Shown here in pieces: positions 22,605 through 30,487 of a stretch of DNA of 64,000 nt. Position 1 is the first letter of the stretch; every line of letters starts with the position of its first letter. Position numbers and translations under genes: made by a program. The stretch comes from Bifidobacterium aesculapii (GTDB taxonomy: Bacteria; Actinomycetota; Actinomycetes; Actinomycetales; Bifidobacteriaceae): NCBI RefSeq assembly GCF_001417815.1, contig NZ_BCFK01000003.1:124001-188000 (forward strand). The letters are read 5' to 3'. The notes under the pieces were generated by a model that was given only the letters and a program-made list of their open reading frames with translations, did not search any database and was not told the DNA's origin.

Positions 22605-25307
<2,703 letters not shown>

Positions 25308-25373
25308 TCCGCACGGCGTCGTCGCGTCGTGCGCAACGCGCGGCACGACGACGCACGGTCCATGGCCGTATAT

Positions 25374-25413
25374 TGTGATGCCCGTCCTTCCTGATGGAGG
25401 GACGGGCATCACA
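25374..25413. terminator. Bidirectional hairpin between acnA and the DUF262 gene
   Basis: TGTGATGCCCGTCCTTCC pairs with GGAGGGACGGGCATCACA around TGAT (18 pairs, one G-T). It lies between two convergent genes and can serve both. Confidence 0.8.
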
Positions 25414-25459
25414 CATATATGAAAGGATCGTCGCAGTCCCGCAGGGTGACGGCGCATGC

Positions 25460-27571
25460 TTACTGCGCCTTGAGGCGGTACTCCTTCCAGATCTCCGACA
25501 GGCGGCGCCCGTCCGAGGTGCGCTTCCACACGTCGAGGCCGCCGCTGGCCTTGCCGCCCGCCGCGGCCTTCGCCGCCGCGGTGGGCGAGGAGTGCTCCGA
25601 ACCGTCGTCGAGACGGAAGCGCCCATCCTCGGTGACGGTCGCGAACCAGCGTTCGCCCTTGCGCGGACGCTCCCATACGAGCTTCTCTCCGGGGATGAGC
25701 AGCCCGGCCTGGACGACCTGCCTGATGGTCACGCGGCGCGAGCCGTGCGCCGGTTTGGCCGCCGCCGCGGTTTCCGCCAGGCCTTCGCCGCCCTGGGCCG
25801 TCAGGTCCGTGTGGTTCTCGTCGTAGCGGATCCGCCAATAGTCGGCGATCAGTTGAATCGTCTCCTCCTGACGGTGCCTGAGCATGGCGGGCGTGCACTC
25901 GTTGAAGTCCTTGAGCCCGTCGGTCAGCGGGAACCGACGCGAATCGGCGCGCATGAGCATCCGCTCGCGGCGAGGCGCGTACTCGTTCATCTTGTCGAGC
26001 TGGTCTGCTGTGCCCTGCGCGAGCGCCATGTCGCCGAGACGGTACATCCAATAGTCGTGGTCGTCCTGCGACCAGTGCGCGAACGAGGCGGACCGTCCGA
26101 TGTCCAACGGCATGATGGTCAGCACGCTGAGCTTGCGTGGCCGTGCCAGCCGCATACCGGCCTTCTGCTCGTTCGCGCGGATGAGCAGAAGACGCACCAG
26201 ATCGTCGTCGCCCTGCATCTCGCCGTGCAGACGCACCAGGGCGCTCAGACGGTCGTTTGCCCGGACGGTCAGTCCGCGCACCAGATTCGTCGGGTAGCCC
26301 TTGTCGAGGTCGCGGATCGCGGCCGTGGCGTGCCCGCGGCGTGTGAACGCGTCCACACGGTTGAGCGTGTCCAGGCCGGTGACGCGCTCCAGCGCCGTCA
26401 GCACCTCGATGAGGCGCTGCTCGTCATGCCCGCCCAACTCCCTGACCGTCGTCTTCGTACGCGCGGCGCGGCCGGCGCGCGACGCGAACGGCGAGACGTC
26501 CGGCGAGCCGAGCTTGCGGTACGAGTGGACGAGCACCCACATGGCGACCGCCTTCCACTCGTGGTGGCGGTAGTCGTTCAGGGCCTCGAGCCGCTCCTTC
26601 ACCTCGTTGGGCAGGACGGTCTCCGGCGCATGGGCGATGATCTGCCATGCGGCCGCATAGGGGGCGAGCGTGCCGTCGATGAACGCGGGCACCGTGCCCG
26701 CCTCGATGTGCGGCTGCAGTACGTCGGCGAGGAACTCCTCGATGAGCTTGCCGGTGGAATGCTGGTGCGTGACGATCATGTGCAGCGTCTCGAAGAACTC
26801 CTCGGTGGACTGCGGGTCGTCGCCGAGCGGCTCCATGATGTCGTCCCAGCGTGCGGCATAGGCGTCGATCTCGGCCGGAGGCAGCGCGGCGGTGGCGCGC
26901 GCCTTGAACACGTCGGACGCGGTCAGCGGCAGTCCGCGCATGTTCATCACGTCGAAGATGCGGTGCGCGCCGTCGAGGTCGTCGGTGGTGACGATGACCA
27001 GGGTGACCATCTTCACCATGTACGAGGCGAAGGCGCGCCGCTCCTCCTCGCCCAGATCCGCCAGCGCATCGTAGACGCGTCGCGTGTTGCGCGTGATGTT
27101 GCGCTGCGCCGCAGTGGTCCAATCCTCGTCGCTCAGATCGAACAGCGCCTCCAGATTGCCTTCCTGCACGTACTCGCGGAAGAACGCGGCGTCCTTCTCG
27201 CGCAGCGTGAGCCTTGGCTCGTTGGCGATGCCGCGCAGTTTGTCGCCCGGGTCGACGATGAGCTTGTCCAGCAGCCCCATCCACTCCGGATCGTGTTCGA
27301 GGTCGCGCAGGGCGGCGATGACGATCGACAGGGACACGAGACGCTGCTGGCCGTCGATCACCTCATAGCGGGTCCCGCCTTCTCGCACGAGGATGAGCGA
27401 GCCGAGGAAATACGGCGTTCCCGGTGTCTTGCACGCTTCGAGCAGGTCGTCGACCAGCTGCATGATGTTCTCCGGCTGCCAGATGTAGGCGCGCTGGAAC
27501 GAGGGAATGGACAGCCGGTAGTTCGGCGTGAACACGTCGCCCAACGGCAGTTCCTTGGCGCTGATTCCCAT
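25460..27571 (-). CDS. DUF262/GmrS-like protein with a degenerate DUF1524 (HNH) domain and a C-terminal RAMA domain
   Basis: This 703-residue protein begins at ATG 27571, preceded by GAAGGGAGCCCAC; an upstream ATG at 27625 abuts the regulator stop but lacks a ribosome site. The N-terminal half is a DUF262 (ParB/GmrS-like) domain: PSFQRAYIWQPENI, the hallmark DGQQR (about 73-77) and FDVMNMRGLPLTASDVFKA. The segment at about 480-600 (LSVLTIMPL, YRLGDMALA, W at the end of a helix) matches the DUF1524 HNH layout, but the catalytic EHI...P and GN positions read LTI and GD. Residues about 610-695 match a RAMA domain, associated with restriction and modification proteins. GmrSD/SspE-type relatives are NTP-dependent nucleases against modified phage DNA; this copy looks nuclease-dead. 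It follows a histidine kinase and regulator in one apparent operon. Confidence 0.82.
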   Translation of the reverse strand: MGISAKELPLGDVFTPNYRLSIPSFQRAYIWQPENIMQLVDDLLEACKTPGTPYFLGSLILVREGGTRYEVIDGQQRLVSLSIVIAALRDLEHDPEWMGLLDKLIVDPGDKLRGIANEPRLTLREKDAAFFREYVQEGNLEALFDLSDEDWTTAAQRNITRNTRRVYDALADLGEEERRAFASYMVKMVTLVIVTTDDLDGAHRIFDVMNMRGLPLTASDVFKARATAALPPAEIDAYAARWDDIMEPLGDDPQSTEEFFETLHMIVTHQHSTGKLIEEFLADVLQPHIEAGTVPAFIDGTLAPYAAAWQIIAHAPETVLPNEVKERLEALNDYRHHEWKAVAMWVLVHSYRKLGSPDVSPFASRAGRAARTKTTVRELGGHDEQRLIEVLTALERVTGLDTLNRVDAFTRRGHATAAIRDLDKGYPTNLVRGLTVRANDRLSALVRLHGEMQGDDDLVRLLLIRANEQKAGMRLARPRKLSVLTIMPLDIGRSASFAHWSQDDHDYWMYRLGDMALAQGTADQLDKMNEYAPRRERMLMRADSRRFPLTDGLKDFNECTPAMLRHRQEETIQLIADYWRIRYDENHTDLTAQGGEGLAETAAAAKPAHGSRRVTIRQVVQAGLLIPGEKLVWERPRKGERWFATVTEDGRFRLDDGSEHSSPTAAAKAAAGGKASGGLDVWKRTSDGRRLSEIWKEYRLKAQ

Positions 27572-27625
27572 GTGGGCTCCCTTCGATGGTGCGGCGCCGC
27601 CGGCGCGGCGGCGCTTCGCTACCAT

Positions 27626-28336
27626 TCAGCCTAGCAGCGGCGGCACGTCCGCGCGCTCGACCAGTCGCGCCATCTGCACGCGCCCCATGGCGAGCTTGTC
27701 CGAGGCGGAGGAGAGGTGAGCCTTCGCCGTACGCTCCGAGATGAACATCCGCGAGGCGATCTGCGCGTTCGTGAGCCCCTCGGCGGCGAGCAGCACCGCC
27801 TCGCGCTCGCGATCGGGCAGCGCGTCGAGCAGTGCGCGCGCCTCGTCGCGGCGGGAACGGGGGCGCGATCCGTTCAGGTCGGCGATGAGCTGCCGCTGGC
27901 TGGCGGTGTTGAACTGGGGTGCGCCTTCGCATACGCCGACGATACGGCGGATGATGTCGTCGGGGGCGTCGGTCTTCGATACGAAGCCTTCGGCGCCTGC
28001 CTCGACGGCGCGTTCCACGGTGCCGGACGGGCTCAGCGAGGTGAGGATCAGCACGTGTGGGGCGGGGGAGAGGGCGCGCAGCCGTCGTGTGGCCTCGATG
28101 CCGTCCACGCCGGGCATGGCGATGTCCATAAGCACCACGTCGGGATGCTCGTCGGCGGCATTGAGCACGCATGACTCGCCGTCGGTGGAGGTGGAGACGA
28201 CCTCGATGCGGCCATGCGAATAGTCGCGGAGTATCAGCCGCATCGCCTGGCAGATCATCGGATCGTCGTCAATGACGCTGACCCGGATCGGGCGGTCGCA
28301 CCCGTCGTCGTTCCTCTGCTCGTCCACGCCGTTCAT
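27626..28336 (-). CDS. NarL/FixJ-type response regulator
   Basis: This 236-residue protein has a receiver domain with the acidic pocket VIDDD (about 21-25), phospho-acceptor D71 in VVLMDIAMPG, and the conserved TSLSPSG and SKTDAPDDI switch regions. A LuxR-type helix-turn-helix follows (LTNAQIASRMFISERTAKAHL). I set the start at ATG 28336, one base after the kinase stop (TAAGATG), giving the usual short lead-in to the receiver; the longer frame lies inside the kinase gene. It should bind DNA when phosphorylated by the adjacent kinase. Likely targets are its own operon and the divergent MmpS-like gene (inference). Confidence 0.92.
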   Translation of the reverse strand: MNGVDEQRNDDGCDRPIRVSVIDDDPMICQAMRLILRDYSHGRIEVVSTSTDGESCVLNAADEHPDVVLMDIAMPGVDGIEATRRLRALSPAPHVLILTSLSPSGTVERAVEAGAEGFVSKTDAPDDIIRRIVGVCEGAPQFNTASQRQLIADLNGSRPRSRRDEARALLDALPDREREAVLLAAEGLTNAQIASRMFISERTAKAHLSSASDKLAMGRVQMARLVERADVPPLLG

Positions 28337-28337
28337 C

Positions 28338-29732
28338 TTAGCCGCGCCACGGCAGCCACACGTCGACATGGAACAGCCGCCGGTCATCCACCCCGTACCA
28401 GCACCGGCCGCCGACGGCGTCCACGCGCGCGGCGAGCCCGGGCAGCCCGGCCCCGTGCGTGGCCTGCGCTCCCGGTTCCCGTCCGCCGTGCTCCGGCATC
28501 GGATTGCTCAGATGGATGTGCACGCCGGTCTGCGGCGCCGCCGACGCCTCCAGCGACGCCGGCGCGCCAGGAGCGTGCCGGCGCGCGTTCGTCAGCCCCT
28601 CCTGTATGGCGCGGTACGCCACTTTGCCGATTGCCTCGTCGAGACCGCTCAGCTGCCGGATGTCGATCCACGTGTTGAGCGTCGTGCCGGAGCCGCGCAC
28701 GTCGGCGATCAGCGCGTCCAACGATTCGCGGGTCAACGACGTATCGTCCGAAGGAGCGAGCTGCTCCCACGCCTGTACTGGGTCGCGCAGCATGTCGATG
28801 ATCGCGTGCGCCTCGTCGAGCGCCCCGGCCGATTGACGGCGGATGTCCTCGGCCTTGGCGGCCAGCGAACGTGCCTCGGGGGAGTCTCCGAGCCGTTCCG
28901 CCTCCGCTTTGAGCGCGGCGGCGTTCAACGCCATCAGGGAGAGCGAATGGGCGAGCGTGTCATGCGCCTCGGCGGCGATCGCGTCCGCGAGCTGCTGGTT
29001 GTTCAGGTCGCTGGCCAACGTCGCGGCCTTGCTCTTGGCCGCGTCGGCCAATGCGTTCGCCGTGCGCAATCGGGCGCGCGAACGGATATGGAGCCCTATG
29101 AGCGTCGCGCCGGCGACGAACACCAGCGAGGCGATCGCCGCGGTGACGACCACGGTGGGTTCCTCCACCATCATGACCGGGGGACGGCCCGAGTCGCCGC
29201 CGGTGTGCGGTTTTGCGAAGACCGTATGCCACAGGGAGGCGTCGGCGGGCTGCAATGCGTCGCGGATCTGCGAGACCAGCGTCGCGATGGTCGCCGCGGC
29301 GACGGCACGTATGGTCAGGGTGCGGTCGGCGCGGCGGGCCAGCAGCGACGTCAGCGCCATCAGCGCGATCAGGGAATCGAACGGGAAGACGACCACCATC
29401 GCGCAGGCGATCCAGAACGTCAGCTCCGGATGGTTCCTGCGTGCCGACAGGAGCAGTCCGGACGGCAGGGCGACCAGCGTGCACAGCACCATCAGCATGA
29501 AGCCGGCCGAATCCTTGTCGAACTGCTGCGCGAAGAACGAGGTCTGCGCCAGACACATGAAACTCGCCGAAGGCACCATCACCAACGTGCACCATGTGCG
29601 TGTGGCCACCGGCACGTCGTCCGCGTTCTGGGTGTTCGCGGAAGGAACCGGCGATGGGCCCGCGGCGGCGGCGCCCCGCCGCGGGTCGGTGGGGCCGCCG
29701 TCGGGCGCGCCGTGCTGAGTGGTCATGGTCAT
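28338..29732 (-). CDS. NarL-family sensor histidine kinase
   Basis: This 464-residue membrane kinase has an N-terminal Pro/Ala-rich tail and about five to six hydrophobic segments in residues 45-220 with no sizeable extracytoplasmic sensor domain, like intramembrane-sensing kinases. A coiled linker leads to the HisKA_3 box AEAHDTLAHSLSLMALNAA with the phospho-acceptor His near 258. The HATPase domain has the N-box-like QEGLTNARRHAPG and the glycine loop GAGLPGLAARVDAVGG. The gene is translationally linked to the response regulator. TAAAGT lies 6 nt before the ATG, predicting a leaderless transcript. The signal is unknown. Confidence 0.9.
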   Translation of the reverse strand: MTMTTQHGAPDGGPTDPRRGAAAAGPSPVPSANTQNADDVPVATRTWCTLVMVPSASFMCLAQTSFFAQQFDKDSAGFMLMVLCTLVALPSGLLLSARRNHPELTFWIACAMVVVFPFDSLIALMALTSLLARRADRTLTIRAVAAATIATLVSQIRDALQPADASLWHTVFAKPHTGGDSGRPPVMMVEEPTVVVTAAIASLVFVAGATLIGLHIRSRARLRTANALADAAKSKAATLASDLNNQQLADAIAAEAHDTLAHSLSLMALNAAALKAEAERLGDSPEARSLAAKAEDIRRQSAGALDEAHAIIDMLRDPVQAWEQLAPSDDTSLTRESLDALIADVRGSGTTLNTWIDIRQLSGLDEAIGKVAYRAIQEGLTNARRHAPGAPASLEASAAPQTGVHIHLSNPMPEHGGREPGAQATHGAGLPGLAARVDAVGGRCWYGVDDRRLFHVDVWLPWRG

Positions 29733-29738
29733 GCCTTC

Positions 29739-29744
29739 ACTTTA
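29739..29744 (-). promoter_or_regulatory. -10 of the two-component/DUF262 operon
   Basis: On the minus strand TAAAGT occupies 29744-29739, 6 nt before the kinase ATG at 29732. The gap to the divergent MmpS-like gene (29733-29920) also has an imperfect inverted repeat built on GGACATGC and GCATGCCGTCC near 29774-29803, a possible regulator site. Confidence 0.35.
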
Positions 29745-29920
29745 TGGGCGTGCGCCGCGTTCCGCCATTGGACATGCGGGCATGGACGCATGCCGTCCTA
29801 CCGCCCGATGGGGCAGTGCGAAAGGGCCGTTCGTACACTGACGTCCGCGTTCCGGTTCCGATAGCGTGTCTGGTAGCAGGACGATTCCAGTCCGCGGACG
29901 AACGAGGAAGGAGAAGGATC

Positions 29921-30487
29921 ATGAGCGATCCGAACACATCCATGCAGCCGGGCGCGCAACCGTTGGCGCCGCAGCAGGCGCCGTCGGGCGCGGGACAGCG
30001 GCCCGGCCGCACCGCGAAGCCGAAGAAGCCGCTGCTGAAACGATGGTGGTTCTGGGTGATCGTGGTGGTCGTCGTGCTCGCCATCGGCGGCGCGCTCGGA
30101 GGCGGGGCGTCGGATGGCGCCGATTCCGGGGCGACGGCGACTTCCAGCCAGCAGTCGTCGGGCGGCGACGCCGCGAAACAGGGCGATGACGCCTCTGCGG
30201 CGAAGACGGAGAAGACGGTCGAGTTCCAGGCCACGGCCACCGGCAACGGCACCGTGATCTGGACCCGCAGCGGCTCGAGCAACACCGAACAGTTCAACGG
30301 CAGCTGGTCGAAGACGTTCACCGGCGATGAGGCCAAGGACCTCACCGGTGTGAGCGTCACCGGCGACATCATGGGAGGCAACGACCAGACGGTCAGCTGC
30401 AAGGTCATCGTCAACGGCGAGGAGAAGGACGCGAAGGAGGGCAGCGGCTCCGCGGGCAGCGCGTTCTGCACGGTGCCCCTGTTCTGA
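29921..30487 (+). CDS. MmpS-like membrane-anchored extracytoplasmic protein
   Basis: The 188-residue protein starts at ATG 29921 behind GGAAGGAGAAGGATC. A Pro/Gln/Lys-rich cytoplasmic tail (1-40) is followed by one span (WWFWVIVVVVVLAIGGAL), a Ser/Ala linker, and a beta-rich domain of about 90 residues with WTRSGSSNTEQFNGSWSKTF, a CKVIVNGEEKDAK strand and a final Cys. This matches the layout of mycobacterial MmpS proteins (span, then a domain with two Cys and a CxITVDG strand). It diverges from the kinase operon. An MMPL transporter occurs 19 kb away, not adjacent. The MmpS relationship is by eye only. Confidence 0.65.
   Translation: MSDPNTSMQPGAQPLAPQQAPSGAGQRPGRTAKPKKPLLKRWWFWVIVVVVVLAIGGALGGGASDGADSGATATSSQQSSGGDAAKQGDDASAAKTEKTVEFQATATGNGTVIWTRSGSSNTEQFNGSWSKTFTGDEAKDLTGVSVTGDIMGGNDQTVSCKVIVNGEEKDAKEGSGSAGSAFCTVPLF

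What the first reader, a model, noticed from the sequence alone, without database searches (positions are those of the whole stretch)
25460..29732. Two-component system in an apparent operon with a DUF262-DUF1524-RAMA protein that looks nuclease-dead
Seen: kinase, regulator and a 703-residue DUF262 protein lie on one strand with gaps of 1 nt and 54 nt. The large protein keeps the DGQQR NTP-binding hallmark, but where DUF1524 nucleases read an EHI..P motif and a GN pair it reads LTI.P and GD. A RAMA domain follows. Known: GmrSD, SspE and related DUF262/DUF1524 proteins restrict modified phage DNA. Inference: an NTP-hydrolysing DNA sensor without cutting activity, controlled by an envelope-stress kinase, could be a signalling or defence module rather than a restriction enzyme.
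Basis: partly seen in the sequence, partly recalled or inferred. Interest (0 to 1): 0.72.

Follow-up and report, generated by a model that had tools for sequence, protein, structure and literature searches.

The report
Nuclease-dead GmrSD-RAMA protein in Bifidobacterium
A relative of DNA-cutting phage-defence enzymes appears to have lost its cutting site but kept its energy-using and DNA-binding parts in dozens of Bifidobacterium species, which suggests it was turned to another job; the sensor genes beside it look like neighbours rather than partners.

Summary
Observation confirmed: kinase, regulator and a 703-residue DUF262-DUF1524-like-RAMA protein lie on one strand with gaps of 1 and 54 nt. 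"Nuclease-dead" is supported and family-wide: in 60 Bifidobacterium orthologues the acidic partner of the catalytic His is kept in 0, the His in 3, the NxxF Asn in 0, while DGQQR is kept in 60. BrxU mutants of that D or H lose cutting but keep NTPase (PMC8565348, passages). The two-component-operon reading is not supported as a conserved unit. With the window, the gene is beside the regulator in 36 of 60 genomes, flipped in 6 of these. 30 of the 31 genomes of its clade carry an extended -10-like element before the gene, also where it is flipped or stands alone; in the window it overlaps the regulator's last codons. Distances follow aconitase (Mantel r 0.875) and the dead domain is under purifying selection. 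Best reading: a vertically kept, non-cutting, NTP-driven DNA-binding protein, probably domesticated. Its role is inferred. New variant of a known kind.

The parts
25460..27571 (-). DUF262 (GmrSD_N) - degenerate DUF1524 (GmrSD_C-like) - RAMA protein, 703 aa
   Evidence: AlphaFold model mean pLDDT 83.8
26897..27541 (-). GmrSD_N/DUF262 NTPase-type domain, residues 11-225
   Evidence: Pfam PF03235 8.2e-36
27341..27355 (-). DGQQR NTPase motif, residues 73-77, present in 60 of 60 orthologue rows
25802..26146 (-). HNH-like (DUF1524) domain without catalytic residues, about residues 476-590; under purifying selection
26108..26122 (-). LTIMP (484-488) in place of (E/D)HxxP
25469..25765 (-). RAMA domain, residues 603-701
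   Evidence: Pfam PF18755 2.4e-23; VIA Z 12.6 rmsd 1.7 over 85 residues to MPND-DNA, Z 12.2 rmsd 2.1 over 87 to CcrM
27628..27636 (-). TGCTAGGCT, extended -10-like element conserved upstream of the DUF262-RAMA gene; here it overlaps the regulator's last codons
27626..28336 (-). NarL-type response regulator (neighbour)
28338..29732 (-). HisKA_3 sensor kinase (neighbour)
22605..25307 (+). aconitase, a recurrent neighbour and the ancestry yardstick

Best explanation
The large protein belongs to a Bifidobacterium orthologous family related to GmrSD-type (DUF262-DUF1524) restriction enzymes. It lacks the HNH active site, carries a RAMA domain, and is kept largely by vertical descent, often near aconitase. 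Shown here by sequence: loss of catalytic residues across the family, invariant NTPase motif, predicted DUF262-DUF1524 and RAMA folds, purifying selection, a conserved promoter-like element of its own in the window's clade, variable linkage to the kinase-regulator pair. Inferred: it binds DNA through RAMA and the Arg-rich pseudo-nuclease domain, cycles between states by NTP hydrolysis as BrxU, SspE and DndI do, and acts by occupying or marking DNA instead of cutting it, more likely as a chromosomal or epigenetic-reader factor than as an inducible restriction enzyme. The two-component genes are neighbours at a shared locus, not its dedicated regulator.
For: Catalytic positions over 60 orthologue rows: acidic residue 0, His 3, Asn of NxxF 0; DGQQR 60. 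Intact EH in seven class relatives and in a second DUF262-DUF1524-RAMA paralogue of the same genus. BrxU D474A and H475A abolish cutting and phage resistance but keep wild-type Pi release; Q101A and R102A reduce it (PMC8565348, passages). DndI needs R87 and the HNH Asn N541 for phage defence (PMC11662687, passages). HNH-like domain dN/dS 0.03-0.34 in 13 chosen pairs. DUF262 distances follow aconitase distances, Mantel r 0.875, n 35, against 0.604 with the kinase and 0.387 with the regulator, n 38 each. Full-length copies: 60 of 112 genus genomes and 8 genomes of a second genus of the family; none among the other 393 of 394 class genomes, with only 2 candidates scored per genome. All 5 phage matches are N-terminal, and the 8 plasmid rows listed of 695 stop before RAMA. 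Promoter-like element in 30 of 31 clade members. Fold: DndI Z 22.5, SspE 21.1, BrxU 12.8, MPND-DNA 12.6, CcrM 12.2.
Against: Three orthologues (G013, G101, G044) still have the His, though without the acidic residue or the NxxF Asn. The gene-kinase association is significant if ancestry is ignored. In an 11-member clade 7 have the pair, intact or as a remnant, on the same strand and the extended -10 pattern was not found there, so co-transcription may be real in some species. In the closest pairs the HNH-like and helical parts evolve under weaker constraint than the N-terminal and RAMA parts. DUF262 itself may have nuclease activity (suggested in PMC4619093, passages). No activity, DNA binding or transcript was measured.
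Confidence: 0.55

Rival explanations
1. A non-cutting phage-defence protein: it senses modified phage DNA and acts by binding, NTP use, or recruiting another nuclease in trans.
For: The solved relatives found, BrxU, SspE and DndI, are defence proteins. PMC10952713 (passages) names DUF262 defence systems without DUF1524: Menshen, Dazbog, PD-T4-2. PADLOC best matches are Orf5, HEC-06 and SspE, mostly over the N-terminal part, and PDC-S14 over RAMA.
Against: Neighbours are metabolic or housekeeping types, descent is near-vertical, no recurrent partner gene was found beside it, and aconitase is seen near the gene in 39 of 59 fetched loci, a lower bound.
Confidence: 0.25
2. The reader's module: the two-component system switches the DUF262-RAMA protein on, as one operon with one function.
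For: Same strand in 30 of 36 adjacent cases counting the window; 54-nt gap here; association of presence, p 2e-5, ancestry ignored.
Against: 6 of 36 flipped, at least two changes on the gene tree; 24 of 60 without an adjacent regulator match; 17 of 60 without a strong kinase match anywhere, and 16 genomes with the kinase but no gene; remnants in G072, G005, G037; own promoter-like element.
Confidence: 0.1
3. A DNA-shielding decoy or competitor of active GmrSD or RAMA enzymes, protecting host or plasmid DNA.
For: A DUF262-DUF1524-RAMA paralogue with intact EH motif occurs sporadically in the genus; the window genome has a further GmrSD with intact EHILP (L002).
Against: The dead protein is far more widespread (60 genomes) than the active RAMA paralogue (6 genomes seen); co-occurrence itself was not tested.
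Confidence: 0.1

Closest known systems
GmrSD/BrxU type IV restriction enzymes (DUF262-DUF1524)
   Same: Domain order, DGQQR, predicted fold (BrxU Z 12.8, rmsd 15.8, 412 aligned)
   Different: No (E/D)H pair, no NxxF Asn, added RAMA, vertical descent at a housekeeping locus
SspE and DndI (phosphorothioate-sensing)
   Same: Best structural matches (DndI Z 22.5, rmsd 8.0, 515 aligned; SspE Z 21.1, rmsd 18.5, 546 aligned); NTPase motif
   Different: Those nick DNA (passages) and work with modification genes; here the active site is missing and no recurrent modification gene was noticed beside it (by eye)
RAMA domains of MPND and CcrM
   Same: Fold of about residues 610-702 (Z 12.6 and 12.2); both contact dsDNA (PMC9963953, passages)
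   Different: 6mA did not raise MPND binding in PMC9963953, so methyl-reading by this RAMA is unproven
DUF262-DUF1524-RAMA paralogue of Bifidobacterium (L232-L237)
   Same: Same architecture; RAMA in the same frame in 4 of 6
   Different: Intact EHIMPQ, LGNLTL and FxxKK motifs, sporadic; RAMA in a separate frame in 2 of 6

Membership tests
GmrSD type IV restriction enzyme | DUF262 domain with DGQQR | tested here: met
GmrSD type IV restriction enzyme | (I/L/V)(E/D)H(I/L/V)xPQ in DUF1524 | tested here: not met
   acidic residue 0 of 60, His 3 of 60; motif definition from PMC4619093 passages
GmrSD type IV restriction enzyme | Asn of NxxFxxKK (predicted metal site) | tested here: not met
   0 of 60; role predicted in PMC4619093 (passages)
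GmrSD type IV restriction enzyme | L(G/A)N of the second motif | tested here: met
   GN in 59 of 60 rows; the window itself has GD
GmrSD type IV restriction enzyme | cuts modified DNA | not testable with these tools
   needs purified protein
SspE/DndI | linked phosphorothioation genes | tested here: inconclusive
   none noticed among the recurrent neighbours, judged by eye; no dnd or ssp profile search was run
RAMA domain | Pfam PF18755 above cut-off and RAMA fold | tested here: met
RAMA domain | reads N6-methyladenine | not testable with these tools
   contested for MPND (PMC9963953 and PMC11037411, passages)
Operon with its two-component system | conserved order and orientation | tested here: not met
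   30 same strand, 6 flipped, 24 not adjacent, of 60 (plus the window)
Operon with its two-component system | no promoter of its own | tested here: inconclusive
   conserved extended -10-like element in 30 of 31 clade members, a pattern match only; the strict sigma-70 scan found none

The most novel reading that the evidence does not exclude
A restriction enzyme domesticated across a genus: an HNH-dead, NTP-driven, RAMA-bearing protein that works on the cell's own DNA as a clamp or epigenetic reader, comparable in logic to ParB-type CTPases (the ParB matches of the N-terminal domain are weak, Z about 4).
Probability: 0.3. Interest if true: 0.7.

Novelty: new variant of a known kind. Interest (0 to 1): 0.45.

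Why it matters
It points to a GmrSD-type enzyme that lost its scissors yet is kept under selection across a gut genus, with a paralogue of the same architecture and an intact motif in the same genus as a natural control. It gives a clean test of whether DUF262 NTPase plus DNA binding does something useful without cutting, and it warns against reading a defence function or a two-component operon from one compact locus.

Tried and rejected
Operon with the kinase-regulator pair: rejected as a conserved unit. Simple decay: rejected, since the 60 frames are open and dN/dS of the HNH-like domain is low. Substitute catalytic His: none conserved at 90% or more in residues 476-590; the model's coordinates could not be inspected residue by residue. 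A recurrent partner gene within 4.5 kb, the known flanking genes masked: no cluster recurred in more than 15 genomes of the 60 loci given, which were 59 orthologue loci and the G098 homologue; many clusters look like spurious GC-rich frames, so a small partner could have been missed. A cognate CcrM-type methylase: PF01555 is not found in the window genome and shows no link (20 of 60 genomes with the gene, 15 of 52 without, at E 0.001, counted by hand); other methylase families were not searched. Strict TTGACA/TATAAT scan of 25250-30000: 0 promoters, 2 terminator-like sites against 1.4 in shuffles. Literature: DUF262 with Bifidobacterium, bifidobacter with GmrSD or type IV restriction (10 of 64 papers listed), and DUF262 with catalytically inactive and HNH listed no paper that I could recognise as describing this family; only open-licence full texts are held and I read none of those hits in full.

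Rows dropped and limits: G098 (567-aa frame, intact motifs, no RAMA) was left out of the 60-row counts and used as the active reference. The structure alignment used 40 of the 54 loci plus the window. One search has 59 rows; the window was added by hand. The kinase list was copied by hand (full or partial matches of about 250 bits or more; four of them, G015, G059, G045 and G100, are split or cut pieces). The 13 dN/dS pairs were picked by me. In one search only 2 candidates per genome were scored. In one search four reference frames (L201, L203, L204, L206) were read on the wrong strand; one search corrects this. The 60 upstream regions are related sequences, so its counts are not independent, and one of the 31 pattern matches (G006, -118) is probably chance.

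Full report
What is there. The large protein has GmrSD_N (8e-36) and RAMA (2e-23) above Pfam cut-offs and GmrSD_C below its cut-off (0.035). An AlphaFold model from 41 sequences has mean pLDDT 83.8 and pTM 0.58. VIA-align ranks DndI (Z 22.5, rmsd 8.0, 515 aligned), SspE (21.1, rmsd 18.5, 546) and BrxU (12.8, rmsd 15.8, 412) for the body, and MPND-DNA (12.6, rmsd 1.7, 85) and CcrM (12.2, rmsd 2.1, 87) for the RAMA part. The high rmsd values of the body mean that domain arrangement differs or is not well predicted.

Who has it. A genus search found a full-length orthologue in 60 of 112 genomes; a profile search of 189 family genomes added 8 genomes of a second genus. Of 394 class genomes (2 candidates scored in each) only the window's own gave a full-length match; 8 others matched, mainly over N-terminal parts. 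Named examples include B. platyrrhinorum, B. stellenboschense, B. pseudolongum and B. merycicum. DUF262 distances follow aconitase distances, Mantel r 0.875, n 35, against 0.604 with the kinase and 0.387 with the regulator, n 38 each; all have p 0.001. Phage records gave 5 N-terminal matches. Of 695 plasmid records 12 are covered to 80% or more; the eight rows listed end at residues 567-584, before RAMA.

Nuclease-dead. Against intact relatives the family lacks the acidic residue (0 of 60), nearly always the His (3 of 60) and the NxxF Asn (0 of 60). GN is kept in 59 of 60, so the window's GD is private; DGQQR is 60 of 60. Six of the eight proteins of the second genus were aligned and also lack both E/D and His. 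All seven class relatives aligned (L199-L204, L206), the own-genome GmrSD L002 and the six RAMA-type paralogues of the same genus keep EH. In BrxU either D474A or H475A stops cutting and phage resistance but leaves NTP hydrolysis at wild-type level (PMC8565348, passages). The domain is not freely decaying: dN/dS 0.03-0.34 over 13 pairs. In the closest pairs this is weaker constraint than for the N-terminal and RAMA parts and similar to the helical part. Its invariant residues include arginines 477, 479, 511, 534 and 567, and R535 is kept in 60 of 60, which would fit retained DNA contact (inference).

The two-component link. With the window counted, a regulator match is adjacent in 36 of 60: 30 on the same strand, 6 convergent; 24 have none beside the gene. 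Flipping needs at least two changes on the gene tree. In G072, G005 and G037 the pair is a remnant beside an intact gene. 17 of 60 have no strong kinase match, and 16 genomes have the kinase without the gene. In five of these 16 (G084, G087, G092, G093, G024) regulator and kinase lie directly beside aconitase, with no gene between. Presence is nevertheless associated (43/17/16/36, Fisher p 2e-5), which shared ancestry may explain; this was not tested with a phylogenetic model.

An own promoter-like element. TG[G/C]TAGGCT stands within 130 nt upstream of the gene in 24 of 60, and any TGNTANNNT in 31 of 60, against means of 0.01 and 2.1 and maxima of 1 and 8 in 200 Markov-shuffled sets. It is present in 30 of the 31 members of the window's clade, G066 being the exception. 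These 30 include five flipped genes, two without the pair, and five in which the regulator is about 750-1,600 nt away. In the window it lies at 27628-27636, inside the regulator's last codons (PPLLG, stop), while the other regulators listed end in different residues. The regulator-to-gene gap is 54 nt here against 181, 250 and 185 nt in the three relatives of highest identity, G058, G097 and G071. A short gap also occurs in G060 (50 nt) and in G072 (about 49 nt, read from the print; its pair is a remnant). The compact look of the window is therefore local. As a pattern match this shows conservation, not transcription. In the 11-member clade in which 7 have the pair on the same strand the pattern was not seen, so co-transcription there stays open.

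Function. Shown: the sequence facts above. From literature passages: DUF262 NTPase cycles drive conformational or oligomeric change in BrxU, SspE and DndI; RAMA contacts dsDNA in MPND and CcrM, with 6mA reading contested. Inferred: a non-cutting NTP-driven DNA binder. Neighbours of metabolic type, near-vertical descent and selection favour a host role over mobile defence, but a defence role without cutting is not excluded.

Noticed in passing
L185 and L197 (B. saimiriisciurei NZ_WHZU01000001.1, 72321-94486 reversed and 237322-259487): 22,166 identical bases including this gene occur twice in opposite orientation in one contig: a very recent duplication or an assembly artefact.
   Followed up: partly
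L232:4287-6764, L233, L234, L235, L236, L237: A sporadic second DUF262-DUF1524-RAMA paralogue with intact EHIMPQ; in G019 and G059 the RAMA part lies in a separate frame.
   Followed up: partly
L002 (G000:C68) and L003 (G000:C80): The window genome has two further DUF262 proteins: one with an intact EHILP site, and one near a contig end with a stop inside the match.
   Followed up: no
window 29870-30484 +: A small protein with one apparent membrane anchor (read by eye) and no Pfam match lies divergent from the kinase; relatives of it lie beside the kinase in several genomes, also where the DUF262 gene is absent from the locus (G070, G063, G065). It may be a likelier partner of the kinase.
   Followed up: no
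L173 (B. simiarum): The DUF262-RAMA gene sits on the far side of the kinase, between the small-protein gene and the EamA gene: a third arrangement.
   Followed up: no
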